A DNA stretch of 64,000 nucleotides, taken from positions 3,138,001 to 3,202,000 of the forward strand of contig NW_025062478.1 in assembly GCF_000002995.4 (NCBI RefSeq). Direction: 5' to 3'. How positions within the stretch are numbered: position 1 is the first letter of the stretch; every line of letters starts with the position of its first letter. A program made the translations under genes and the position numbers. This document shows positions 17,001 through 61,600 of the stretch, one piece after another. This DNA is from Brugia malayi. Its lineage: Eukaryota; Nematoda; Chromadorea; Rhabditida; Onchocercidae. The notes beneath the pieces are model-generated. The model made no database searches and had not been told where the DNA came from. It worked only from the letters and a program-made list of their open reading frames with translations.

Positions 17001-19509
17001 GCCAAATAGGACCAATTCATTTTATGCGTTTCATTAGTATGGCATGGGTGATCTTTGGACATGCGACAAGTGGTTATATGATGCTAAGTTGTGAGTATAG
17101 CTTAACTCTGATCTACTTATAATAGTTATTTCTTACTGAACTTATTAAATATCGATTTTCAGCAAACATCTTAGACTGTAAGGAAACATTTAAAAATTTG
17201 TGGACGCAGTTTATGACTAACGCATTCTTTTCCGTTGATACATTCTTCTTCATGTCTGGTTTATTAGTATCGTATACTTGGTTCAAAGAATACCGAAAAG
17301 ACAAGAAGAAAGCAATGTCATCTACCACTTGGCTTATATTTTACATCCATCGAATAGTTCGGTATTCATTACTATATTTGTACAACAATGTCGTTTTTAC
17401 TATTAATTAATTTGATTGACTACGAGTGAAATGTAATGAATAAATCACAATAAGCTAAAATTAAAAATTCAGTCCTAACTGTTATATTTTCGAATACTTT
17501 TTTTTAAACTAATCAACTAGCTTTAAGTTCATTTTAATGGAGAAGACAATTAGCAAATTAATAATTTTTAGACTTTCGCCACCTTATTATATTGTGATAG
17601 CATTTTATTCGTTTGTATTTAAATCATTTTTGGTTAATATGCCAGTTATTTTAATGACACTTAATGATTATTGCGAGGAAAGTTGGTGGACCAATTTCTT
17701 ATATCTCAACAATTTTATTTATTACAATCGTCAAGTAAGTTCATTTGCTTCATGTGGTTCTGAGTATGGTAAGATTAACCTAAAATACCGATCAGGATTA
17801 AACGGATATTTGATAAGTGAAGAGAAGTATTTATTGATCGGATGAATAAATAATTGTGTATAAAACTATTTAGTGCTATTTGGTGACATGGTATCTGGCG
17901 ACTGATTTTCAAATTCACATTTTTGCACCAGCATTACTGATACCGTTAGCTCTGAAACCTATGCTTGGTTTCATTATAGCTGGTCTACTCTTACTACTTT
18001 CAACTGTTGCAAATTTGGTGACAGTGTACATGGAGTACTTTCCACCAACAGATTTCTATATAGGTGTCATGGATCCTAGAATGGGTCCATACAGGTTTAC
18101 TTTCAATTTGAAAATAATGGAATAAAAAATATCCAAAAGTTTCCTAATTTTTACTTAGAATCTTTGATTCGAAGTAATGATGTACTAATTGTAATTCAAA
18201 TATTCAGTGATTGCTTTTTTTTTTTGTCGGAAATATCATTGCAAACTAAAAATGACATTCAATTAAAAATAGAGAAATTAAATTTATGAGTAATTCTAAT
18301 AAATTAATCGCTGCTTTACTCGCTGCATACTTATTATTTTAGACGTTACTCACTTCTGATATATCAAGCACCTTGGATCCGATGCCAAGTTTATATTATA
18401 GGTATTCTAGTTGGCTACTTATTCCAGACTATAAAAACTCTCCACATATCAAAGGTTTAGAAAAATTTATAAAATTTATCATGTTTAAGTAGCACACAAT
18501 ATGATCAATTTCAACCATACAATGATTATTATTTCTAATTTTAATTACTTTAGTCATTTTAGTTAATTTCAAATTTTCAGCTAACAAATATTATTTGTTG
18601 GATCATTTCATTAACACTCGGTCTACTAGTGATAATGTCATTAAAAGATTGGATGGGCTATGATATCATGATGGATTTATCTGTGAGAGCCTTCTATTCT
18701 GCATTTAGCAAGCTTTTGTGGAGTTTATCTTTAGCTTATATTACAATCGCATGTTTTTACGGTTACGGAGGTAAGCATATCATATGATAAGTTTTTTTTT
18801 TTTTATTTATTACTCGTCAGGTTGTTCCTTAAAATGATTTCAGCTAACAAATATTATTTCTTGGATCAATTTAAAAAAAAAAAAAAAAAGAGAGCAAACC
18901 ACTTTGTGTTTTATTCGTTTCATCAGAATTAAATTTATCGATTATAAAATTAATTGTCTTATCTCTTCCACTTACAATTATATGAAATTATAATTAATCA
19001 GGGTTCAATTACAGGACCCATAAATGATTTCATGTCATTATCAGTATGGAAACCATTGGGTAGACTTACTTACTGCACTTATCTAACTCATTTAATTGTA
19101 TTGATATATATGCTATGTATAGGTGTTAATGCATTTAGCTTCTCGAGTATTACTCATACGGTATGTGATTACTTTATAACTTTTGAAAAGTTATCAACTT
19201 TGAAGAAGTTTATCGATTGATTTGCTACATGAGAGATTCTTTTTTATTTTCTGTATTATTTGTCACTGACATTTTGCAATGGGAATTTTTTTTCAGTTCA
19301 TTGTCTTTGCACTACCATGTTGTATCATTTCATGGTTCTTTGCATATTGGCTAAGTATTTTGTTTGAACTACCGATAAGTAAGTTGGAGATGATACTACT
19401 GGGCAGAATTCATGATAAAACAGTGCAAAGACAAACGATACGAGAAATACAAGCTGTGGAGCAAAATCATCCAATTATCAGTTGCTGGAAAAAATCGGAA
19501 GAATTATGA
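14011..19509 (+). CDS. NRF-6-like acyltransferase (NRF domain + acyltransferase 3), complete, 15 exons
   Basis: Multi-pass membrane protein of the nose-resistant-to-fluoxetine family; family members in C. elegans act in intestinal lipid and drug transport. Exons: 14011-14151, 14313-14439, 14602-14709, 15247-15385, 15580-15725, 16086-16176, 16616-16736, 16871-17090, 17163-17361, 17572-17734, 17874-18094, 18343-18454, 18581-18770, 19015-19160, 19297-19509; 2,337 nt, 778 residues, phases consistent. Residues 1-19 form a signal peptide (MRSFELSIINFLLLPLVAS). The NRF domain follows, with IDASAKLPPSGILRGH, GQYEECM and paired cysteines (CLPSSC). The acyltransferase-3 part has FMRFISMAWVIFGHA with the family histidine, FFMSGLL, YIHRIVR, the CYLVTWYLATDFQ helix and GRLTYCTYLTHL. 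It ends with a short basic tail. The exon 3 donor (GTTGAT) and exon 7 donor (GTGACG) are non-ideal and were set by phase. Confidence 0.88.
18834..18866 (+). repeat. Partial duplicate of the start of exon 13 inside the next intron
   Basis: ATTTCAGCTAACAAATATTA followed by TTTCTTGGATCA repeats, with few changes, the acceptor and first ~27 bases of exon 13 (from 18574). The copy lies about 260 bases downstream, in intron 13 of the acyltransferase gene. It then runs into a poly-A tract and has no donor that would make an exon. Confidence 0.85.
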
Positions 19510-23971: not shown

Positions 23972-26900
23972 TTATTGGATATAAAACAAAAGGGGCAATT
24001 GCTGTTGTAACTTTTGGAGAAGACTTTGTTTGCTTTTCAGAAGTTCTCCAACGACAGGCTGTTGTCGTTGGAGAAGTTGCTGAAGTGAAGGTTGCTTTTG
24101 CAGGAGTTGTTGAAGAAGTTGTTGTTGTTGTTGCATAAGTTGTTGGAATTGGACTTGTAGCTGGAGAAGTTGTTGAAGGAGATTAGGTATTTGCTGAGGT
24201 TGCTGGAGCATTTGTAGAAGCAGTTGCTGTTGTTGTTGTACAAGCTGCACAAGAAGTTGTTGTTGTTGGAGGAGCTGCTGAATAAGTGGTTGCTGTTGTT
24301 GGAATTGCTGAAGAAGAAGTTGTTGTAGCTGTAGAAGTTGTTGAAGAAGAGATTGTTGTTCTTGGAATAATCTCTGGAGAGAAGGCCGTTGCTGTTGCAA
24401 TTGCTGAAGCAGTTGCACTTGATGTTGAAGCTGCTGAAGAAGTAATTGTTTTTGTTGTTGAAGTTGCTTTAATACAGTTTGGTGTTGTTGAAGCAGTTGA
24501 ATAAGTTGTTGTTGCTGTTGAATTTGATGATCATGATGATTATGATGTTGAAGTTGCTGGAGATTTTGTTGCATTTGTTGTTGAAGAACAGATGGTTGTT
24601 GTTGGAGAACCAATAGCTGCTGTTGCGTCTGCTGAAGAGCAAGCAATTGCTGTTGCAAAAATTGTTGAAGAATAGGTTGTTGTTTTTGAAATAATTGTTG
24701 TTGATGAGGTAGTTGCTGCAGTAGATATTGGACAGTCTGTTGTCGCTGAAGAAGTTGCTGAAGAATGACACGTTGTTGGTGCTGAAGTTGATTCAGAAAT
24801 GGTTGATGATGCTGAAGTTGTTGAAGGATACTATGCTGTTGTTGAAGAAGACTTTGTATTTGATGTTTACAGTTATGCTTATGTTGGTGTTGTATAAGTT
24901 GCTGAAGAAGTTGTTGTTGTTGTTGGAGAAGATGCTGAAGGTGCGGCTGCTTATGTTGTAGTTTCTGAAGAAGCTGTTGTAGTTGTAGAAGTTGCTGAAG
25001 CAAAGGATTTTGTTGTTGCAAAAGTTTATAGATATAAGGATATTCCTCTTGTAATTTCCGGATCAGAAGTTGCTGCTGTATAAGAAGTAGTTGAGGAGCA
25101 GTTTTTTTCTTGTGTTGCGGTTTTGGCTTCTTAGTTGTCAGAATTTTTGTTGCTGTAGAAGTTGTTAAAGCAGTGAATTTTGATATTGGAATTGATGTAG
25201 AAAAAGCTGTTGTTGTAGAAGAAATTGAAGTGGATGTTTTAAGTGTAGTTGTTGTTGTAGAAACTGTTGAAGATGTTGTTATTGTAGTTGGAGTTGATGT
25301 GGAAAAGGTTGCTATTCTAGAAGAAATTGTCGAAGGAGAAGTTGGTCTTGTTGTAGTTGGAGTTGATGTGGAAAGGGTTGTTGTAGAAACTGTTGAAGAT
25401 GTTCTTGTTGTAGTTGGAGTTGATGTGGAAAGGGTTGTTGTAGAAACTGTTGAAGATGTTCTTGTTGTAGTTGGAGTTGATGTGGAAAGGGTTGTTGTAG
25501 AAACTGTTGAAGATGTTCTTGTTGTAGTTGGAGTTGATGTGGAAAGGGTTGTTGTAGAAACTGTTGAAGATGTTGTTATTGTAGTTGGAGTTGATGTGGA
25601 AAGGGTTGTTGTAGAAACTGTTGAAGATGTTCTTGTTGTAGTTGGAGTTGATGTGGAAAGGGTCGTTGTTGTTGTAGAAACTGTTGAAGATGTTCTTGTC
25701 GTAGTTGGAGTTGATGTGGAAAGGGTTGTTGTTGTTGTAGAAACTGTTGAAGATGTTCTTGTTGTAGTTGGAGTTGATGTGGAAAGGGTTGTTGTTGTAG
25801 AAACTGTTGAAGATGTTGTTATTGTAGTTGGAGTTGATGTGGAAAGGGTTGTTGTTGTTGTAGAAACTGTTGAAGATGTTCTTGTTGTAGTTGGAGTTGA
25901 TGTGGAAAGGGTTGTTGTTGTAGAAACTGTTGAAGATGTTGTTATTGTAGTTGGAGTTGATGTGGAAAGGGTCGTTGTTGTTGTAGAAACTGTTGAAGAT
26001 GTTCTTGTCGTAGTTGGAGTTGATGTGGAAAGGGTTGTTGTTGTAGAAACTGTTGAAGATGTTGTTATTGTAGTTGGAGTTGATGTGGAAAGGGTCGTTG
26101 TTGTTGTAGAAACTGTTGAAGATGTTCTTGTTGTAGTTGGTGTTGATGTGGAAAGGGTTGTTGTTGTAGAAACTGTTGAAGATGTTCTTGTCGTAGTTGG
26201 AGTTGATGTGGAAAGGGTTGTTGTAGAAACTGTTGAAGATGTTCTTGTTGTAGTTGGAGTTGATGTGGAAAGGGTTGTTGTAGAAACTGTTGAAGATGTT
26301 GTTATTGTAGTTGGAGTTGATGTGGAAAGGGTTGTTGTAGAAACTGTTGAAGATGTTCTTGTTGTAGTTGGAGTTGATGTGGAAAGGGTCGTTGTTGTTG
26401 TAGAAACTGTTGAAGATGTTCTTGTTGTAGTTGGAGTTGATGTGGAAAGGGTTGTTGTAGAAACTGTTGAAGATGTTGTTATTGTAGTTGGTGTTGATGT
26501 GGAAAGGGTCGTTGTTGTTGTAGAAACTGTTGAAGATGTTCTTGTTGTAGTTGGAGTTGATGTGGAAAGGGTTGTTGTTGTAGAAACTGTTGAAGATGTT
26601 GTTATTGTAGTTGGAGTTGATGTGGAAAGGGTCGTTGTTGTTGTAGAAACTGTTGAAGATGTTCTTGTTGTAGTTGGAGTTGATGTGGAAAGGGTTGTTG
26701 TAGAAACTGTTGAAGATGTTCTTGTTGTAGTTGGAGTTGATGTAGAAAGGGTTGTTGTTGTAGAAACTGTTGAAGATGTTGTTATTGTAGTTGGAGTTGA
26801 TGTGGAAAGGGTCGTTGTTGTTGTAGAAACTGTTGAAGATGTTCTTGTTGTAGTTGGAGTTGATGTGGAAAGGGTTGTTGTAGAAACTGTTGAAGATGTT

Positions 26901-29106
26901 CTTGTCGTAGTTGGAGTTGATGTAGAAAGGGTTGTTGTTGTAGAAACTGTTGAAGATGTTGTTATTGTAGTTGGAGTTGATGTGGAAAGGGTCGTTGTTG
27001 TTGTAGAAACTGTTGAAGATGTTCTTGTTGTAGTTGGAGTTGATGTGGAAAGGGTTGTTGTAGAAACTGTTGAAGATGTTGTTATTGTAGTTGGTGTTGA
27101 TGTGGAAAGGGTCGTTGTTGTTGTAGAAACTGTTGAAGATGTTCTTGTTGTAGTTGGAGTTGATGTGGAAAGGGTTGTTGTAGAAACTGTTGAAGATGTT
27201 CTTGTTGTAGTTGGAGTTGATGTGGAAAGGGTTGTTGTTGTAGAAACTGTTGAAGATGTTCTTGTTGTAGTTGGAGTTGATGTGGAAAGGGTCGTTGTTG
27301 TTGTAGAAACTGTTGAAGATGTTGTTATTGTAGTTGGTGTTGATGTGGAAAGGGTCGTTGTTGTTGTAGAAACTGTTGAAGATGTTCTTGTTGTAGTTGG
27401 AGTTGATGTGGAAAGGGTTGTTGTAGAAACTGTTGAAGATGTTCTTGTTGTAGTTGGAGTTGATGTGGAAAGGGTTGTTGTAGAAACTGTTGAAGATGTT
27501 CTTGTTGTAGTTGGAGTTGATGTGGAAAGGGTCGTTGTTGTTGTAGAAACTGTTGAAGATGTTCTTGTTGTAGTTGGAGTTGATGTGGAAAGGGTCGTTG
27601 TTGTTGTAGAAACTGTTGAAGATGTTCTTGTTGTAGTTGGTGTTGATGTGGAAAGGGTCGTTGTTGTTGTAGAAACTGTTGAAGATGTTCTTGTTGTAGT
27701 TGGAGTTGATGTGGAAAGGGTCGTTGTTGTTGTAGAAACTGTTGAAGATGTTCTTGTTGTAGTTGGTGTTGATGTGGAAAGGGTCGTTGTTGTTGTAGAA
27801 ACTGTTGAAGATGTTCTTGTCGTAGTTGGAGTTGATGTGGAAAGGGTTGTTGTTGTTGTAGAAACTGTTGAAGATGTTCTTGTCGTAGTTGGAGTTGATG
27901 TGGAAAGGGTTGTTGTTGTTGTAGAAACTGTTGAAGATGTTCTTGTTGTAGTTGGTGTTGATGTGGAAAAGGTTGCTATTCTAGAAGAAATTGTCGAAGG
28001 AGAAGTTGGTCTTACTGCAATTATTGGAGTTGGTGTGAAAAACGCTATTGTTGTAGAAGAAATTGCTGAAGAGGAGGATGTCCTAATTGTAGTTGTTGTT
28101 GATGTAGAAAAGGTTGTTGTAGTAACTGTTGAAGATGTTCTTGTCGTAGTTGGAGTTGATGTGGAAAGGGTTGTTGTTGTTGTAGAAACTGTTGAAGATG
28201 TTGTTATTGTAGTTGGTGTTGATGTGGAAAGGGTCGTTGTTGTTGTAGAAACTGTTGAAGATGTTCTTGTTGTAGTTGGTGTTGATGTGGAAAGGGTCGT
28301 TGTTGTTGTTGTAGAAACTGTTGAAGATGTTGTTATTGTAGTTGGAGTTGATGTGGAAAATGCAGTCGATGTAAAAGAAGTTGAAGAAGTTGCTGTTGTT
28401 GTTATTATAGAGGTTAACGCGAAAAAGGCTGTTGTTGTTGTTGTACTTCCCGAAGTTGTTGCCTTAAAAAAACTAGAAAATAAAAATTACAAAATTTGTG
28501 ATAGTGAAAATGCTAATTTACTCACAAAAAGACAGTTTGATCTCTTAATGGAACGACTGAAACTAGAGCTGTCACCGCAATGGCGAAGCTATGACGTAAT
28601 GAACAAAGACTATTGTTTTAAGTGATTTTAATCCACTTGGTAACCTTAACATCCATAACATCCCTCCCAATTTTCTTCCTTACAAAGCCATTCATTGTAG
28701 TTCTTTGTTTGGTATGGCTCGGTTGCGAGGTGTCTAGCTTGCTTATATCTTTAAATGTTTTATAATTAAGTTACATTTGTGTGTTATGTATCAATTCATT
28801 ATTGTATGTGGTATAATTTTTAATGTTAATCTTTGGTTTAATTAGCCAAATTTGAGGTTTGAATAATAAAATATTTCACGAAGACTCCAACAGTAACATA
28901 CACAGAACGGAACCAATGCAGATCTGAGATTCTACCAGTATCGAGGACAAAGAAGTCAACGATCTGAACTATCAAGAAAGGAAACCTACTTTGTTCCACA
29001 AGGAAACAGGACAATTTTCAAAAAATTGAAACAAATTTGATACCTTCGTACAAGATGAAAAAGCAATGATAAGAAGGAAAATGATTTCTTTCTTCATTTT
29101 CACCAT
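23972..29106 (-). CDS. Secreted mucin-like protein: signal peptide, ~45 Ser/Thr repeats, Gln/Leu-rich tail
   Basis: Two-exon model, 1,517 residues. Exon 1 29106-29044 encodes MVKMKKEIIFLLIIAF plus SSCTK, a clear signal peptide, with donor AAG/GTATCA in phase 0. Exon 2 28462-23972 starts after TTTTTAAG in phase 0 and stays open for 1,497 codons to TAA. Residues about 22-48 are Thr-rich; about 49-1060 are repeats of 19-21 residues (LSTSTPTTTRTSSTVSTT plus one to three Thr), dense in O-glycosylation sites. A basic linker (KKPKPQHKKK, near 1133) leads to a 370-residue tail made almost only of Gln and Leu (LLQQLLQLQQ pattern), with CAA/CAG and varied Leu codons. The repeat part has no ATG, TTG, CTG or GTG codon in this frame, so simple ORF finders miss it. 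Known relatives by architecture are secreted nematode mucins such as microfilarial sheath mucins; homology is not shown. An extra exon in the 581-base intron is possible (29.0-28.87 kb has an open stretch). Confidence 0.75.
25360..27960 (-). repeat. Coding tandem array, 57/60/63-bp units, about 43 copies
   Basis: On the plus strand every unit contains GTAGAAACTGTTGAAGATGT followed by a block ending in GATGTGGAAAGGGT. Unit lengths vary by whole GTT triplets. Most variable sites (GTC/GTT, GGA/GGT, GTA/GTG on the plus strand) are synonymous on the minus strand (Thr, Thr, Ser). One common variant, CTTGTT versus GTTATT, changes Arg to Ile. Four further copies lie at 28120-28350 and one at 25260-25300. 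All lengths are multiples of three, so the frame is preserved throughout. Confidence 0.95.
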
Positions 29107-32100
29107 CTCGATTAATCAAATTTGAACTAAAAGTAATTGACTGCGAATCAAAACAGTAAATGCTTGCATTTTTAAAGTTTTCAGTTGAGTATAGAACTTT
29201 AAACACTATTTAACAATTATTCAAATCAACAATACAAGTGTACTCTATGAATTAGCCAAGCATCAAGCAGTTTATGATTCGAGAAATCTCGGTCAAATTC
29301 TTTTCTTATTTTCTATGGCAGTGAAAACCACCCTCCAGAATCGCATAATATTTCTAAAAAGGTTTCTTTTTAGCAAAAGAACCTTCTCCTTATGCAACCT
29401 TTGAGAAAGTATGAAGAAACATTAAGTTTTCTAATTTTTGCCCAGTTCTCGAATTGTTGATAGACCGAATAGTTTGAGTTGTGCTGCAAAATTTAAAGAC
29501 ATTTATATGCTATTTGTTTCATTCTGCTTTTGCAGAAATTTCCAGTTGAAATTAGTTGAATTGAATTGAAAGCATTGTGTTCCGAAATTGTATTTTTCAT
29601 CCAAAACTTGGGGACAACATGCATTGCTTTCAGAATATTCACCGTATTATTGTTCTTTCTATTTAAATGGATGAATTTTGATACAATAAAATAAATTAAA
29701 AGAATGGTTTGTTTTGTTATTTTGTAAAATTAAAAAAGCATACTGATTAATAGAAACTTTGCTGATATTAAAGAAACAGCTTTTTGTCTTTATTCAACAC
29801 TTTTGCTTCTTTCTTTTCTCTGAAGAAAGACATTACCAAAAAAAAAAAAAAAAAACTAATTATACAAGTTGCTTACCAGTCTGAGCATTTCAACAATAGT
29901 AATCGGTTATGTTCGATTATTGATGGTGGATGCTAATTTTGAAGGAAAGTGCAGTGTGCATATATAGCATTATTAGCATTACTAAAGTTTTTATTTTTTA
30001 ATTATTAAATTAATTATTTGCAAAAATATTAATGACTTCCATGAAGTTGAAGAATATTTGATAAACAGTTGAAATTTGTCAGTAGTGGTTTGTAAATGCA
30101 ATGAATGAAGTACTCTACATAAATTGAAATTTGAAATAAAAATTATTTGTCATCTTCAGAAGCTTTAACTGTCAGTTCTGTTATCAGTAGATGAAATAAA
30201 CTTTTTTCTTGCTCAATGTACTACTATTCAAAATATTCCTTCCGGTTTATTTACTGCAACAATGCGACGTTTACGTAACTTATTAAATTATCTATTGAGC
30301 AAATCATCGTATATTTGTTTTCTGATAATGAAAATGAAAATAATGATATTGATTTGCTGATAGTAAAGGAGATGAATTAATAATTTATTTAAATATTTAG
30401 ATTCCATAAGTTAATACTCGTATATATGTTTAACTTCTCGTAAGAATCCGAATAGAATGATTGCAAAATTTGCATATAATCAATTAATCAGTTGAATAGT
30501 TATTTTTGATATTTTATTTGAAGTTCCAACTTTTACCAAGCAATTCTTCCGGATGAATTCTAAACTTTTACTATAGTGTTTACTGAGTGAGCTATTGCAA
30601 ATAATCATTGTGTTAAATCAAATCAGTTCAGTTTATCAGAAGAATAAATTATTTAATGCACGAATATATTTTTAAAATTATTCTAACATAGAAATTTATA
30701 TTTTAAAATAAAATTTCCACTGCAATTTCTTTTTTTTTTGCACTTTTCAATATGAATTAAATTTTTAATTAATTAATTAATTGGTATATAACTTATAAAA
30801 CGGTAACCTTATAAAGTTATATGCTAGAATAAATTAAAGCTTAATTTTATCAGTAATGCAATAAATGCAAAAATTAAAAAAAACCACATGCAATAATCGA
30901 ATTTACAGATTATAATTGTACTTTATGAAATGCAAATTATTGCACCAAGAAATTCTTTCAAATATAAATTTTAGAAAAATCCAAAAACAAAAAATTTTTT
31001 ATCATTTATAAGCATTTGAAATTAGATATATTTGTGAGTGAGAATGATCAAATCTTACACATTTTCATCATTTTATCCGTACATCATCAGCAAAGTATAT
31101 AATTATTTTAACTTATCTTTTTATCATTACTCTTATCAAGTCTGAATTACTAATCTTTTATAGGTAAGACTATAGGTAAAGCCGTTGCACTTATACAACT
31201 AATCCAAGATAAAAGCATCATTTATTTCAATTTCAAAAAAATGATCTTTCAGTTTAGTGAAAGATCATTTTCTGTGGTTTCATGGTAAATTGAAAATTTA
31301 TTTATTGGATATGGAAGTAAATACAAAGTGAAAAATTAGCTCTTTAAAATAATAAGTAAACAAAAGAGAAAATACAGAGTATTGCGAATAATTTCAAAGA
31401 GGAAAAAAAAAAGACATTTCGATAAATTTTGAGAGTTTCTAAGAATACAAAAAACTTGAAATAAGAAATTTATACAAATAGAATAAATTGTGTGATTATT
31501 AAATTGAATATTAAAATAATTTGTTAAAAAACTTATTATCTCTTGATAGTGAAGTAAATAAGTATAAATTAATATTTAGCAATTTAAATATATATTAAAT
31601 ATATAGCGGAAATTTGATATAGAAATAATTTAAATATGGTATTTATTAATTGAAATATTATGATACATCTATGTTCAAAAAAAAAAAAAAGACTTTTAAT
31701 TTTAAGCAAAAAATCTTCGCAATTTTTTTCATTGCTTTTTAAATGGTTATCATTGGTCTTTTTAAAATTTAAATTATATTATTTTTTTTGGGGAGGAAAT
31801 TTTCATTTTTAGTTTAGCTTAGTCTTTTATTTGCTTCCTGTTCTATAATAACTTTATTTTTAATATATATTTGAGTTTAAAATTTTAACTTTTTTAGTAA
31901 TAAATAATTAACTACAAGTAGTTATTAAGTAATTACCATATAAGAATGTAATTGAATCTTACTTGGTAGCATTTCCAATTGATTGCTAAGGTAAATAGTT
32001 GAAATTTTGAAAATTTTTCTGTTAAACTTTATGCTATTTTAAAATCTCTATCAAAAAAAGAAAAATTTATTTTAACAATTATTTTGGAATTGCTGTCAAA

Positions 32101-39921: not shown

Positions 39922-42900
39922 ATGAGAATTTACCAACATCAGAGTGCGACGCTGCTTGCGATATGGATAGCTTGTAAGTTGAAGTTCGCTTGAACTCTTC
40001 ACAAGATTTGCGACATGGATAGCTTGTAAGTTGAAGTTCGCTTGAACTCTTCACAAGATTTGCGACATGGATAGCTTGTAAGTTGAAGTTCGCTTGAACT
40101 CTTCACAAGATTTGCGACATGGATAGCTTGTAAGTTGAAGTTCGCTTGAACTCTTCACAAGATTTGCGACATGGATAGCTTGTAAGTTGAAGTTCGCTTG
40201 AACTCTTCACAAGATTTGCGACATGGATAGCTTGTAAGTTGAAGTTCGCTTGAACTCTTCACAAGATTTGCGACATGGATAGCTTGTAAGTTGAAGTTCG
40301 CTTGAACTCTTCATAAGATTTGCGACATGGATAGCTTGTAAGTTGAAGTTCGCTTGAACTCTTTATAAGATTTGCGACATGGATAGCTTGTAAGTTGAAG
40401 TTCGCTTGAACTCTTCACAAGATTTGCGACATGTATTCTGATGACATACGTTATTATGATGATAGCCGTGTACCTACTTCATCCATCCACCTATTAAGGC
40501 ATCATCGTTGGACCGGTTTCAAGTTCTATCCAATACACGCGAGAAACAATGCCAGGTGCACAATATTATGATGGTAAAAAGTTAAATATTCCAATTTCAA
40601 AAGAGGCTGCAGTTGAACTCATTGAACGATGGATTCATCAGGGAATAAGCAGTATGATGGCTTGTATTGCCACCCAACGGTTAGTTCGTTCTTGTCATCT
40701 GTACTCTCATGTGTGACATGCATGAATTTAAACATAAATTGGCTTTTTGTAGATCAGGAAATTCTCTCTGAACGGAAAAAAGAGACAGGAGGAGCACAAA
40801 AAGAAATATAAAACTCAGTTGTTGATCTCGATGTCACATCCAAATATTATTTTCATTTTGAAATTAACATTCTTTAGCAGAAAAATGTTTACTTCAGCCT
40901 AAGCAAATTAAACGAATATGAACGGAATCGAGTGCAAAAGTGTTCACAAGCCGCTCAGGACATTTACGAACAGGCAAGATGTGTAGTCCGAGCCATTGAT
41001 GCAAAACCGAAACAGATGGATCCTACAAGAAGTATCGTTTCACGTCTTAAAACACACTTACGTCAACTATTAGTGCAACTGTTCACACTTCTGATGGAAG
41101 ATATAATCACTTCAATATTTAAAAATCAATAGAAATACTTGTATTGGATGGATAGTGCAGGTAGTTATTACTTAAATTGATGTTAATTTAATTAATTAAT
41201 ATTAATTAGCATTCTTCTCCTCGTACAGTTTCACATATGCAAAAGCTGCAAAAATTAATGGATGGAAAACAGAAGATAGTCGGTGCTATAATCCAATCTG
41301 AATCACATCACATCGATTTCAATCGAAGCAGAAAAAGGGAACAGGTGGAATTCCGAACACGGCGAAGTGTAATCAATCGACACAGTTATAAGTTACACAC
41401 TGAATACGACCATTTGACACCCTTTGGTATTCTCGGCAAACACTTATCGAAGATGACAAGAATTATCAAAAATAAGGAGCCGAATTCATCGTTAGTTTTG
41501 AGTTTTGCAGTAATTTTCTTTGAACTTATCACTATGAAAAATGAAATTGTCGTTGTGGCAAAAAAGAAAAAAGTATTATTTGAGAGAGATTTGCTTCTTG
41601 TATATATGTACGATAAAATTTACAAAGTCGAGGAGATCATTTTTTTGGTTCTAAAATTGTTTTAGCATAACATATGTGTGTATTATTGAATTGGAAGTTC
41701 TTTATTAGACTTCATGGATAGTCATATATAAACAAAGAAATGTAAACAAAGAAAGGAAAAGGTAAAAATTAAGTGGGAAAAGTAATGTATGAAAGATTCA
41801 CGGTAGAAACATAGAATTGGAAATAAAACATTTCAACTGTAAACATATTTACAGTATTGCATGCTTAAAACAAAAAGCTTATGTATAAGCATTATTTGTT
41901 TTTTACGTTCATTTATTTTTTTGTTTAAATATTTTAGAGTTTGGCGACACTAAAATTTTGCGACAATTTATGTCAAATGAGACTGAAATGAACTAAGCAA
42001 TATAAAATCATTTTTAGTTCCATTTCAAAAGAACAGTAATTTAGATGGAAGAAAACGATGTATGAAATCGAAAGTTTAAAACGACGAGAACAAGAAAAAA
42101 ATGATTTCGCTGAGAAATTAAAGAAACGATTTCCATTCAGTTTCAAAAATACGGAACCTAAACTAACACCGGTGAGCACTTTTAAGCAAATTGTCGGATT
42201 AAATTCAATAATTTTGATAAATAAATTGTGTATCCTTAATCGATTCCTATTTCAATAGATTATTTATGATACAAAACGGATTGTTCAATCTCGAAATGTA
42301 AAACTTTTTAATTTTATTCTTTCAGGAAGAAAAACTCTTAGCGAAAGAATTACATATATCGAATCATCTTCTGCAAGGTTTGGATAAAAACAGTATGAAA
42401 ACAAAAAAAACTTTGGAAATTATTCAACTCTTTAAACGAGCAATTAAACTTGCGATGGTGCTTAATGGTGCCAATGGTACCAAATTAGAAAATAAGACAC
42501 TCAGATTTGGTTCACCGCGTCTGTTATCATTGGTACCTGACAATGTTAATGATCAGGTATGCTTGCTGAACATTGAATTATTCCGGATGTTTCGCTTTTT
42601 GCACCGTTAACCATCTGAAGTCTTACGTCTCAGCGATCTGAGAGCAAAATAAAAAGTTTCTTTTCAGATTAACATCTTATCTCCGTCACTGCTCAGCATG
42701 CATGATAAAGGCAAAGGCTTAGAAGCACTAACTAGTGTTCCGGAATTACTGAAAGCTGCCGGTAACAGGGATTACGAAGAATGGCTAAGCTTCATTATAG
42801 AAGCATCCGGTACAACTGATGCAATTCATAAACTGAAGGTCTGATTTATCAGAACTCTTCAATTAATACCTCTTACTATACCTTATTAGGAGTTTTCAAT

Positions 42901-44058
42901 TAAGTATTCAGTATGAGTTAATAATTTTCTGAAAAACATTCAGGAAAAGAATGAATTGGATTGGCTACCACCCGGTTATAAATCAATGCCACGTGGAATA
43001 GACGGTCAACCGATGTTTTTTACGAAGGAAAACGTGACAGAATTTGATCCTGAATTAGCTAGAGAAGTGGAACTTTTCGAAAATTTGACACATTCACTTA
43101 CGCCAAAACAGGTTGAATTGTTTTCCTCGCAATAAATCTTTTGGAAAAAGTGCAAAATCAAATTTTCAAATTACTTTCATATTTGAAAAACTATTATTTT
43201 TTGATTTCGACGTCATTACCGGATGAGTTGTCGATGAATGAAAATTATTAATATTCTTAATTCGAGAAAACTCTTTGTTCACCTCAGTCAATAATAATAC
43301 AAACACTACAGTTAACGGACTTCAATACAACCGGATTCTCGATGATGACTCCAAAGCAGTTGACAATGTTCTATGGCCCACAGTCACCTTTAAACGACAG
43401 CAAAGCGTTGAATTTCTTTCTGTCACTAAGTGAAGATGACATGCACCGTCACATTCTCAGTGATATCCGTGATATGGCGAAGATGAATTCTTCCTTAAAA
43501 ATACGTCGAAAACGACGGAAAAACATACTTACTCCATTATCTTTCGATAACAAAACATTTTATCCAACAACAAAGCCATCCTTCTTATCACCTGTAGCAT
43601 TCGCACCAATACTTTTCTCTCCGTCAGTTTTTGGTGCCACTCTATTAAGTCCAGGTGTATTCTTACCCATTCTTCTCTCTCCAGCTCTCTTAAGTCCAAC
43701 TATCTTGTCACCAATTGCACTTTCTCCCATTATCCTATCACCACTAGTTATCAGTCCTGGTATTTTAAGTCCTGGTGCTTTGGTACCGGCTATTTTATCA
43801 CCCAGTGCATTATCACCAGGTATTTTATCACCATCAATACTTTCACCCGCTATTATGAGCCCATTTGTTCTAAACCCTTTCATCCTTTCACCAACATCAC
43901 TTACCGCTCTAGTTGCAAGTCCATTTGCTTTGTCACCATCTTTTTTCTCGCCATCTTACGGTGCTGCACTAATCTTCTCACCATACGCATTCTCACCGCT
44001 CTTTAATTCGACCGGTAAAGCAGTCACTTTACTATTTTCACCGAGTGTAGGTAGTTGA
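39922..44058 (+). CDS. MLT-10-like moulting cycle protein (9 exons)
   Basis: Secreted nematode protein of the moulting-cycle family, involved in cuticle replacement at moults. Exons: 39922-39973, 40499-40679, 40898 to about 41061, 41229-41490, 42045-42171, 42326-42556, 42668-42838, 42944-43111, 43312-44058; about 700 residues. Exons 1-2 encode a signal peptide (LLAIWIACIIVGPVSSS across the junction). The middle has YDHLTPFGILGKHL, EKLKKRF, LLSLVPDN, ILSPSLLSMHDKGKG, WLSFIIEASG, LPPGYKSMPRGIDGQP and TGFSMMTPKQLTMFYGP, in the order usual for the family. The last 170 residues are the hallmark tail of short hydrophobic repeats, ILSP/LLSP/ALSP and variants, after a dibasic site (IRRKRRKN). The exon 3 donor is the weak point: the frame stays open to 41132, and I placed the end at 41061 (GTCAAC) only by phase. 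Other junctions agree in phase. Confidence 0.85.
39958..40433 (+). repeat. Nine tandem 52-bp copies spanning exon 1 end and its 5' splice site
   Basis: Units start at 39958, 40010, 40062, 40114, 40166, 40218, 40270, 40322 and 40374, with a partial tenth at 40426. Each contains GGATAGCTT/GTAAGT, the exact end of exon 1 and its donor in the mlt-10-like gene. Copies are nearly identical; changes are GCGATATGG in the first unit and TTCATAAG or TTTATAAG in two later units. Confidence 0.97.
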
Positions 44059-58600: not shown

Positions 58601-61600
58601 CTTTTTTAGTGCAATTTTAATTTGAACAAAATTATACATATCAAAATTTTAAAATTTTTCAATCTCTTTTTATGAATTTCAAAATTTTGGTTTGCTTCTC
58701 TTCAAATTATATTTAAATTTTGGAAAACAATTAAGAGCTAAATTTATCAGATTATTATCAATAAGTAACGTAGAATTGATTAAAATTTCACACTTTTATT
58801 AGTTCTAATTGTAAATAAATTTGTCATACATATTTCAATGTCACATCTTTTATGCAAATTCTACTAATAAATTTAATTAAATTTACTCCTGAAATTTATT
58901 TTTTTTTTGAAATTTTTTTTTTTTTTAAATTTTTTTGAAATTTAATTTTTGAAATTTAGACTACCTAAAAGCTATTTTAGGTGATTGGAAAAGGTTTTAA
59001 TGCAGGTGATTTGGGACCAAATACAATTGTTGGCTCAGCAGCATTTAATTTATTTATGATAATTGCAATATGTGTAATGGCTGTACCAAATGGTGAAATT
59101 CGACGTCAAAAACATTTAGACGTATTTTGCGTCACTGCAACGTGGTACGTAAATTTTTTTTTTTTTTTTTTTTTTTTGTGTTCCCTAATTTTTTGATAAA
59201 TTTAAATTTACTAATTAAATTATGGGCGAAGAAAAAAAGAAGAATTAAAAAAGTAATTGTAATATATATTTTTTTTTAATTTTTAAAATAATAATAATAA
59301 TAATTGATTTTAGGTCATTATTTGCATATATTTGGTTGTATTTAATTTTATCAGTATTTTCGCCAGGTATTATTGAAATATGGGAAGGTTTATTAACATT
59401 TCTTTTCTTTCCAATTACAGTATTAACTGCATATGTTGCTGATATTAAAATTATACAGGTTTGTCTTTACCTTTTTTCTTTTCTTTTTTTTAAGTATTAA
59501 TTTTGTAAATTAATTACAAATGAATAATTTCATTTAAAATATCAAAAATTGTTAAAAGTTTTATAATTTAAATAAAATTAAGTAAATTTGAAATTTTATT
59601 TTATATTTTTCAAAATGTTAGAGGCGTTTTATGCCACATCGTTATCGTAGAACATCGCATGGAATTGTTGCAACAGAAGGTGAAGAAATGGAAATTTTGG
59701 GTGAAAATGGTTATCTTAAAGTTAGTAATTAAAAAAAGAAAAAAAAAAAAAAGATTTCTTTTAAAAATTTTTTAGCTTATTTTTGATTTTTTAAATTTTA
59801 TCAAACTAATCATATTTATCATTAAAATGGTGGTGTTTAATTTGAAGAATGCCTTTTTATAACATCTACTTAAGCTATATAATTTTATTTAATAATAAAT
59901 TTTGTTAAAATTAAAACTCTAAACTTTTCCAAATTTTTTTTTTCTTTTTTTTAAAATTTAAAAAAAAAAAATTTTTTAGGGTAATAAAATTGATCCAGCT
60001 GTAAAAGCATTCGAAGATAATCGAAAAGCATTTATTGAAATTATGCGTGAAATTAGGAAAAAAAATCCACAAATTGATCCAAGCGAATTACAAAAGCAAG
60101 CAGAATATGAAATGATTAGTCGTGGTCCAAAATCAAGGGCATTTTATAGGTAAATTTTGTGGGTAAATTTTATAGGTAAATAAGTGGGTATAAAATATTT
60201 GTAAATAATAAAATAATTAAGTGATAAAAAAGCATCGAATAATATAATCATTAAAAAATGATAAAAATGAGTGGTATTTAGCGATAAAATTTTTTGATAA
60301 ATTTGGATTAAAATCAAACTTAGAATTTTTGTTTTAAATTTTACTAAACAACAAAAAAAAAAGTTTTGACATAATATCTAAAATTTTTTCACAGAAATGA
60401 TTAATTATTATTTTTGATAACAAATTTATTAGAATATTTTAGGGTGCAAGCAACCAGACGATTAATTGGTGGTGGACATGTGATAAGGAACCAACTTGAT
60501 AAAGAACATCATAAATGTGCTGTATGTTTTATTGTTTATTGTTTACTTTTTTTTGAAAGAATAATTATTGTTCTTATTTAGACTTTAAAAAACTCTTTAA
60601 TTTTTTTTTTTTTTTTTTGAAGAATTCAACTAATTAGGAATTCATCAAATAAGAAGTAAACAAATAGAACTGTTAACTGTTAATTAGGAATTTATCAAAT
60701 AAGAAGTAAACAAATAGAACTGTTAACTGTTAATTAGGAATTTATCAAATAAGAAGTAAACAAATAGATAAATCATTGATATAAATGTAAGACTTTTTTA
60801 GAGCATAAGCAGGCATTAATTTTAAAATTTATTAATTTGAAAAAAATGAACAATGATAAAATTACTGTAAAGAAGAAATAAGCAATGTTTAGCCAATAAT
60901 TGTGCTAGTTTTTCTTTTCTTTTTTTAGAAAAATAAAAGTTGTAATAAATTTGAAATATAATGAAATTAATTAATTGTATATTTGCAAATAATTTTAATT
61001 GACAGTAATTTATAAATTATTTAATTTATTCAAATTATTTTAGTTTTGGATGAATTTTGCACTCGAAATGTTCTAAATTAAATAATAAGTACATAATGAG
61101 AAATTAACAAATATTTTGAATTTAAAATTGCTCAAGAGCAAGAGAAACAATTTCAAGAACTTAACAAATATTTTGAATTTAATTTAAAAACAAATATTTT
61201 TACAAATATTAACTGAACAAATATTTTTAATTCAAGAAGCATAAGAAACAATTTCGAGAAATTAACAAATATTTAAAATTTAAGATTGCTCAAGAGCAAG
61301 AGAAACAATTTCGAGAAAATACCTGCAAAATATTCTTTGATCCAGCTCATTATACTGTACTTGAAAGTGTTGGAACATTTGATGTAATTATTGGCCGAGA
61401 TGGTGGGCCTAAAGGATTAACAGTTATGGTTGATTATTGCACCGAGGATGGTACCGCTAATGCTGGAAATGATTATATTCCAGTTAAAGGGACATTAATT
61501 TTTCGTCCAGAAGATAAAATACAAGTTAATAATTTTATAAGCATATCATTTTATTAAATTAAAATTGTTAACATTTAATTTAATTAAGCATAAAATTAGT

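What the first reader, a model, noticed from the sequence alone, without database searches (positions are those of the whole stretch)
23972..29106. A 1.5-kb-codon mucin-like gene hidden because its repeat frame has no start codon
The obvious long frame here is on the plus strand (Val/Glu/Asp repeats, begins with TTG, no ATG for over 1,100 codons). The minus-strand frame offset by one base is open over 28462-23972. It gives Ser/Thr/Pro mucin repeats flowing in frame into a Gln/Leu tail, and it is preceded by a signal-peptide exon in matching phase. The Thr/Ser codons are never start codons, which explains why ORF callers miss it. The combination of mucin domain plus long Gln/Leu tail looks unusual; I cannot say whether it is described.
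Basis: partly seen in the sequence, partly recalled or inferred. Interest (0 to 1): 0.88.

Follow-up and report, generated by a model that had tools for sequence, protein, structure and literature searches.

The report
Mucin gene grown from own leader
In a roundworm genome (likely the human filarial worm Brugia malayi), one of 15 related gene loci for predicted secreted, glutamine/leucine-rich proteins carries a roughly 1,100-residue serine/threonine-rich, mucin-like stretch that likely arose by repeated copying of about 20 codons at the start of its own second exon, so the unexpanded sister genes would show what the gene looked like before the mucin was born.

Summary
It is not an isolated oddity. 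The signal exon occurs at 15 loci in the genome. In the 13 other loci where exon 2 could be reached, a short Thr-rich leader runs on into the Gln/Leu domain with no array. Against its two closest sisters the focal tail is about 87% identical with dN/dS about 0.40; about 0.9 kb of upstream DNA is 87% identical. At protein level the array was found only here. Its units align in frame to the family's own ~20-codon leader; 22 of 24 distinct units start at the same place. Best reading: a Gln/Leu-rich secreted-protein gene that became a mucin in place by amplifying its leader. The extra intron length is an interspersed repeat. Expression, glycosylation and function are untested. Shp3 could not be compared, and no classical transglutaminase core was found.

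The parts
29201..30077 (-). upstream region shared with sister loci (putative promoter / 5' flank)
   Evidence: blastn 87.2% over 895 nt to the locus at C138:1930 kb; 14 of 14 other loci match over 518 nt or more, 75-87% identical
29044..29106 (-). exon 1: 21-codon predicted signal peptide MVKMKKEIIFLLIIAFSSCTK
   Evidence: same exon at 15 loci; no signal-peptide program was run
28463..29043 (-). intron 1, 581 nt, GT..AG, phase 0
   Evidence: its last ~105 nt match the introns of 13 of 13 sisters and its first 21-42 nt those of 12 of 13; sister introns are 145-276 nt
28590..29010 (-). interspersed repeat element inside the intron
   Evidence: 40 other rows in the genome, 38 of them 86-92% identical; two rows are neighbours, so about 39 places; only 40 of 80 candidates were scored
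28382..28462 (-). Thr-rich leader of exon 2 (ATTSGSTTTTTAFFALTSIITTTATSS), family-wide block
   Evidence: DNA alignment to four sister leaders
25133..28381 (-). Ser/Thr/Pro mucin-like tandem array: 53 segments when cut on the motif (the first also holds the leader), 44 of them regular units of 57-66 nt
   Evidence: found only here at protein level; weaker DNA matches elsewhere, 64-76% identical
27983..28054 (-). diverged unit TTIAFFTPTPIIAVRPTSPSTISS that keeps the leader's AFFT; aligns gap-free and in frame, 47 of 62 nt, to the leader of two sisters
   Evidence: 0 of 500 codon shuffles of either partner reach the score, in each of four sisters
25094..25132 (-). Lys/Pro hinge KKPKPQHKKKTAP between array and tail
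23975..25093 (-). Gln/Leu-rich tail domain, 87% identical to the closest sister (84% over a slightly different stretch)
23972..23974 (-). stop codon TAA
25095..28625 (+). open plus-strand frame (1,176 codons), judged a by-product of the array
   Evidence: the array it depends on is absent from the 13 sister loci read

Best explanation
The minus strand of 29106-23972 holds a two-exon gene model, one of 15 loci sharing its signal exon, that would encode a 1,517-residue predicted secreted protein whose Ser/Thr-rich mucin domain likely arose by tandem copying of the family's own ~20-codon leader block in front of a Gln/Leu-rich tail. Shown: the open frame, the family, the conserved splice edges, constraint on the tail, the array's absence from the 13 sisters read, and in-register, in-frame similarity of units to the leader. 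Inferred: the ancestral gene was signal exon + short Thr-rich leader + Gln/Leu domain; unequal exchange or slippage multiplied the leader block in steps of whole codons and homogenised the middle of the array. Inferred function: the array would be densely O-glycosylated and extended, while the Gln/Leu domain, possibly helical, self-associates or packs with the shorter sister proteins, giving a glycan-coated secreted layer (an egg, uterine or larval coat is the guess). Tissue, stage and partners are untested.
For: Open frame, splice phase and coordinates. Signal exon at 15 loci. In 13 of the 14 others exon 2 was reached; each has the Thr-rich leader running on to the Gln/Leu domain without an array (one, C127a, with frame breaks); the 14th runs off its contig. 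Focal tail against its two closest sisters: 87.3% and 86.5% aa identity, dN/dS 0.397 and 0.394 over 363 codons, fewest changes at codon position 2. Upstream 87% over 895 nt; 3' flank matched in 10 of 10 sisters compared, 66-78% identical. Array found only here at protein level (14 of 14 rows). Units against leader: 24 of 24 distinct units align in frame 0, 22 of 24 start at leader position 26-27, 21 of 24 beat all 60 codon shuffles; the diverged unit at 28054-27983 has z 7.1 and 0 of 500 shuffles. A 15-nt unit motif searched in the DNA regardless of frame occurs 47 times, all in one phase; 46 of 46 spacings are multiples of three. The focal tail groups with two array-less sisters at support 100/100. 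Hydrophobic periodicity near 3.5 residues lies above the 95% shuffle level in 4 of 4 tails tested, in one only just.
Against: No transcript, peptide or annotation could be consulted. The units also resemble Gln/Leu-coding DNA read one base over, often with higher raw scores, because both are rich in CAA/ACA; there 8 of 24 units beat all shuffles. Units are copies of one another, so the 24 are not independent tests. Several units score weakly against some leaders (up to 58 of 500 shuffles reach the score), and 3 of 24 do not beat all shuffles. At DNA level 12 of 26 rows for the array lie elsewhere, at 64-76% identity, including another mucin-like array on C136. dN/dS was not tested against 1, reaches 0.72 in other sister pairs, and in many pairs position 1 changes as often as position 3. 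The tree is unrooted, so loss of the array in the sisters is not excluded by topology. The strongest hydrophobic period is 5.1-5.2 residues in 3 of 4 tails and 10.65 in the fourth, not 3.5. The helix model is low confidence (mean pLDDT 51, single sequence). No Transglut_core match was found, which weakens a Gln-Lys cross-linked coat. Protein-database searches found no homologue, so the family's spread is unknown.
Confidence: 0.72

Rival explanations
1. The mucin array came from the gene's own Gln/Leu-coding repeat read in another frame, not from the leader.
For: The array read one base over is 62% Gln+Leu, and the tail read two bases over is 52% Ser+Thr. Three of the 26 array DNA matches lie in Gln/Leu-coding DNA of sisters at 72-76%. 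Raw scores against Gln/Leu DNA are often higher than against the leader.
Against: The Gln/Leu target is about eight times longer and low in complexity. After codon shuffles the leader match stands out more (median z 3.5 against 2.5; 21 of 24 against 8 of 24 units beat all 60 shuffles). The leader match needs no frame change, starts at one place in 22 of 24 units, and explains the AFFT unit.
Confidence: 0.12
2. The array is ancestral and was lost, or overwritten by gene conversion, in the other family members.
For: The tree is unrooted. Conversion between loci is plausible: two sisters share an in-frame TAA at the same codon.
Against: 13 of 13 sister loci read lack it, including the two closest. 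The middle of the array is nearly uniform (5 variable columns of 48 in 44 units), as in a young or homogenised array.
Confidence: 0.12
3. The plus-strand Val/Glu/Asp frame is the gene, or the array is a non-coding satellite inside a dead copy.
For: The plus frame is open for 1,176 codons. At least four sister copies are broken (P2613, P2636, C92b, C127a).
Against: The plus frame rests on the array, which the 13 sister loci read lack. The minus frame joins a conserved signal exon to a tail with dN/dS near 0.4.
Confidence: 0.04
4. It is one of the known microfilarial sheath surface mucins (Shp3/Shp3a) or their direct relative. This does not exclude the leader origin.
For: [quoted passage not shown] Shp3 peptides were found in microfilarial secretions (PMC2659452, passage).
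Against: Shp3 sequences were not obtainable. From memory Shp3 has no long Gln/Leu tail. A different mucin-like array lies on another contig (C136:5599065-5600727).
Confidence: 0.06

Closest known systems
Mucins born by 'mucinization' of a non-mucin secreted gene (Pajic et al. 2022, as reviewed in PMC12776774, passages seen)
   Same: A signal-peptide gene gains an in-frame Ser/Thr-rich tandem repeat by expansion of a short stretch; whole-codon units
   Different: In the reviewed cases the precursor is a proline-rich protein in mammals; here it is likely a Gln/Leu-rich nematode protein with a Thr-rich leader, and unexpanded sister loci remain in the same genome
Human MUC1 repeat (60-bp units coding 20 residues; PMC12776774, passage)
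   Same: About 60-bp exonic unit, Ser/Thr-rich, many copies
   Different: MUC1 is a transmembrane mucin; here no Pfam domain was found and the C-terminal part is Gln/Leu-rich
Filarial microfilarial sheath mucins Shp3/Shp3a (Hirzmann et al. 2002; title only)
   Same: Mucin-like proteins of Brugia
   Different: Paper and sequences not held, so homology is untested; a long Gln/Leu tail is not part of what I recall of them
Louse nit sheath proteins LNSP1/LNSP2 (PMC8383413, passages seen)
   Same: Gln-rich, repetitive egg-coat proteins with 12-13 Lys; C-terminal poly-Gln domain
   Different: No mucin domain is described in the passages seen; transglutaminase is reported to cross-link them, and no Transglut_core match was found in this genome

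Membership tests
Mucin (in the broad, PTS-repeat sense) | Long tandem repeats rich in Ser/Thr with Pro | tested here: met
   859 of 1,110 residues Ser/Thr, 56 Pro; 44 regular units
Mucin (in the broad, PTS-repeat sense) | Secretory signal | tested here: inconclusive
   Hydrophobic 21-residue exon in phase, conserved at 15 loci; no prediction program or experiment
Mucin (in the broad, PTS-repeat sense) | Dense O-glycosylation | not testable with these tools
   Needs glycoproteomics
Gel-forming or membrane mucins (VWD, cysteine-knot, SEA domains) | Characteristic Pfam domains / Cys-rich ends | tested here: not met
   No Pfam match at E <= 0.01; one Cys in exon 2
Shp3/Shp3a sheath mucins | Sequence homology to Shp3/Shp3a | not testable with these tools
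   Paper not held; no sequence available
Shp3/Shp3a sheath mucins | Location in the microfilarial sheath | not testable with these tools
   No expression or proteome data linkable to this locus
The Gln/Leu-rich family found here | Shared signal exon and phase-0 intron edges | tested here: met
The Gln/Leu-rich family found here | Thr-rich leader followed by homologous Gln/Leu domain | tested here: met
Mucinization as in mammals (Pajic model) | Non-mucin precursor gene with in-frame repeat expansion | tested here: inconclusive
   Array-less sisters and in-register units, in-phase spacing; direction is inferred, the tree is unrooted
Mucinization as in mammals (Pajic model) | Proline-rich precursor | tested here: not met
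   Sisters are Gln/Leu-rich with a Thr-rich leader
Transglutaminase-set egg coat (works like LNSP) | A classical transglutaminase in the genome | tested here: not met
   PF01841: 0 matches, control rings in 10 of 14 genomes; the six-frame search can miss genes split by introns. PF00927: 0 matches, but 0 of 14 controls rang, so that search says nothing

The most novel reading that the evidence does not exclude
A mucin domain of more than a thousand residues was born in place, on one gene of a Gln/Leu-rich secreted-protein family clustered on one chromosome, by amplifying a 20-codon leader after this gene split from sisters that still carry the single-copy leader. The two halves of the protein share one DNA vocabulary in which a one-base shift swaps Ser/Thr for Gln/Leu, so this family could switch between coat types by repeat growth or frame change. 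It would be a two-part glycan-plus-helix coat protein of a kind not described for filarial worms.
Probability: 0.5. Interest if true: 0.66.

Novelty: new variant of a known kind. Interest (0 to 1): 0.56.

Why it matters
Mucin repeats change fast, so their origin is often hard to read (general knowledge). Here the likely single-copy precursor survives in 13 sister loci of the same genome, the closest at dS about 0.17-0.18, so the birth of a mucin could be studied step by step. If expressed, the protein is also a large, predicted secreted and probably glycosylated coat candidate in what is likely a human parasite. It comes with a family of Gln/Leu-rich secreted proteins that I did not see described in the listings and passages of ten paper searches.

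Tried and rejected
Protein database searches with the tail region and with a whole sister exon 2 scored 7,948 and 7,978 candidates and kept none. Pfam found nothing in the focal protein, its tail or one sister; the solved-structure sequence search found nothing. A single-sequence model of the tail is almost all helix, but at mean pLDDT 51, so it was not used for a fold search. Transglutaminase cross-linking of Gln and Lys was considered as the main mechanism and demoted because no Transglut_core match was found. Other places matched by the array DNA were looked at: C136:5599065-5600727 (KSTTTATTSTVSST repeats, Trp-rich end, apparently broken frame), two Thr-rich stretches on C139 and C138, and a place on C135 whose 10-kb surroundings hold a poly-Gln stretch; none of them was hit by the signal-exon or tail searches. 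No inverted repeats were found in the intron stretch. Ten literature searches showed no description of a Gln/Leu-rich filarial family in the listings, or in the passages of the 12 papers opened; this covers only open-licence PMC papers, and long listings were cut. One of the ten was about mucin evolution, not filariae. On checking, the unit lengths proved to be whole codons by construction (units were cut on the translation), so I repeated the test on DNA without regard to frame.
Full report
What is there. On the minus strand, 29106-29044 codes MVKMKKEIIFLLIIAFSSCTK, followed by a 581-nt GT..AG intron in phase 0 and one exon, 28462-23972, of 1,496 codons and a stop. The model protein has 1,517 residues. 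Residues 1-1110 of exon 2 hold 859 Ser/Thr and 56 Pro; of the remaining 386, 258 are Gln/Leu. Cut on its motif in the translation, leader plus array splits into 53 segments, 44 of them regular units of 57, 60, 63 or 66 nt. Because the cuts were made on the translation, those lengths are multiples of three by construction. Searched in the DNA without regard to frame, each of three unit motifs occurs 47 times, always in one phase, and 46 of 46 spacings are multiples of three. Among the 44 regular units only 5 of the last 48 columns vary: three at third codon positions, and two second-position changes found in the same number of units (12 of 44). The array ends are more diverged. A shared stretch (CCAACTTCTCCTTCG..., 1 difference in 63 nt) lies near each end, as expected if the middle was amplified and homogenised.

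The gene belongs to a family. A search of the window's own genome (86.8 Mb, 139 contigs) with 218 nt around exon 1 gave 17 rows. One is the window, two rows belong to one locus, and one is a 33-nt match that overlaps a copy of the intron repeat, so there are 15 loci including this one. Ten of them, this one included, lie on contig C138 between about 1.91 and 3.89 Mb; five lie on the small contigs C92 and C127, which may be alternative copies of placed loci. Exon 2 was reached in 13 of the 14 other loci; C127c runs off its contig. In all 13 a Thr-rich leader (ATTPGITVVTTAFFTLTQTITTRTVSSS and variants) runs straight on into Gln/Leu-rich coding DNA without the array; in C127a the frame is broken. 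Reading from ATG to stop, 10 of 15 are open: the window's gene, P1930, P1920, P1913, P2609 with a shorter end, P2620, P2629, P3887, C92a and C127b. Two (P2613, P2636) carry a TAA at the same codon, C92b has a 62-nt exon 1 (out of phase), C127a has frame breaks, and C127c is incomplete. My labels P1930 and so on give the position on C138 in kb. A protein search with one sister gave 18 rows: 14 of the 15 loci (C127c has no exon 2; C127a takes three rows) and two fragments near C138:3,875 kb.

Conservation supports the minus-strand model. Upstream DNA matches the closest sister at 87% over 895 nt, and 14 of 14 other loci over 518 nt or more; the 3' flank matches in 10 of 10 sisters given to that comparison, at 66-78% (I left out four loci that are broken or incomplete there). 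The last ~105 nt of the intron match 13 of 13 sister introns, the first 21-42 nt 12 of 13. The extra length is an interspersed repeat with 40 further rows in the genome. Over 363 codons of the tail, dN/dS against the two closest sisters is 0.397 and 0.394 (Nei-Gojobori); with P1930, changes by codon position are 31, 18 and 40. I gave nine open members and left out P2609 and all broken ones; the 36 pairs lie between 0.33 and 0.72, no pair was tested against 1, and in many pairs position 1 changes about as often as position 3. A tree of 13 tails puts the focal gene with P1930 and P2629 at 100/100. It is drawn with a midpoint root, which shows no direction.

Origin of the array. At protein level the array is found only at this locus (14 of 14 rows; 12 candidates scored). 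At DNA level 14 of 26 rows are this locus and 12 are elsewhere at 64-76% identity: another mucin-like array on C136 (six rows), three places in Gln/Leu-coding DNA of sisters, and three others. Each distinct unit was compared with the leader (first 135 nt of exon 2) and with the Gln/Leu DNA of five sisters out of the 12 prepared. Against the leader, 24 of 24 units align in the coding frame, 22 of 24 start at position 26 or 27, 21 of 24 beat all 60 codon shuffles, and the median z is 3.5. For the first segment I dropped the first 69 nt, which hold most of the gene's own leader copy. Against Gln/Leu DNA, all 24 align one base out of frame, 8 of 24 beat all shuffles, and the median z is 2.5, although raw scores there are often higher. 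The units are copies of one another and so not independent tests. The unit at 28054-27983 (TTIAFFTPTPIIAVRPTSPSTISS) aligns without gaps to the leader of two sisters in 47 of 62 positions; in four sisters 0 of 500 shuffles of either partner reach its score. Against this, some other units do poorly against some leaders (up to 58 of 500 shuffles reach the score), and one short segment (25258-25217) does not match at all (52 of 60). I conclude that the leader is the likelier source, not a proven one.

The two frames. The array read one base over is 62% Gln+Leu with 21 stops, and the tail read two bases over is 52% Ser+Thr with 9 stops. This follows from codon choice (CAA CAA CTT against ACA ACT TCT), and it is why similarity to Gln/Leu DNA must be discounted. 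Over the array one minus frame and one plus frame have no stop, while the other four have 4 to 114; the open plus frame is read as the complement of the repeat, since it has no counterpart in the sisters.

How it may work (inferred). A signal peptide would send the protein out of the cell; the array would be O-glycosylated and stretched; the Gln/Leu tail would associate with itself or with the shorter sisters. The tail shows hydrophobic periods near 5.2, 3.5 and 10.7 residues above shuffles and a low-confidence all-helix model. A short Lys-rich hinge lies between array and tail. Gln-Lys cross-linking as in louse nit sheaths (PMC8383413, passages) was considered. The genome shows no Transglut_core match, although a C. 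elegans PDI is reported to have transglutaminase-like activity (a title in the reference list of PMC5547380), so this is only a possibility. A filarial eggshell becomes the microfilarial sheath (PMC5538754, passage), and three sheath proteins are abundant in the reproductive tract (PMC4569401, passages); that is the reason for the coat guess, not evidence for this locus.

Known kinds. In mammals, mucins are reported to arise when proline-rich genes gain Ser/Thr repeats (PMC12776774, passages). This case has the same logic with a different likely precursor and a visible set of unexpanded sisters. Shp3/Shp3a could not be compared.

Limits. There are no transcript, peptide, read or cross-species data. 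Contigs C92 and C127 may be allelic, so 15 is a count of assembled loci, not of genes per haploid genome.

Noticed in passing
window 28590-29010: A ~420-nt interspersed element inside the intron with 40 further rows in the genome, 38 of them 86-92% identical; no inverted repeat found in the stretch.
   Followed up: partly
L010 and L012 (C138:2613573-2614787 and C138:2636209-2637429): Two sister copies share an in-frame TAA at the same codon while the rest of exon 2 stays open for 243 and 245 codons, suggesting common descent or gene conversion of a truncated form.
   Followed up: partly
C127 contig, 2-980 minus strand (L021): A broken sister copy in which a frame break seems to turn Gln/Leu codons into a Ser/Thr-rich stretch.
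   Followed up: no
C136:5599065-5600727 (L025): Another mucin-like array (KSTTTATTSTVSST units) with a Trp-rich C-terminal end and an apparently broken frame, next to what looks like an inverted duplication.
   Followed up: no
window 43261-44058 plus, and 41210-41665 plus: First holds a Moulting_cycle (PF04870) match at E 2.5e-20 followed by LSP-type repeats; second shows weak matches below cut-off, one to the start of the same family.
   Followed up: partly
window 61231-61557 plus: Open stretch with a Calx-beta domain match (PF03160, E 1.3e-15).
   Followed up: no
window 17126-17410 plus: Open stretch with a weak Acyl_transf_3 match, below the curated cut-off.
   Followed up: no
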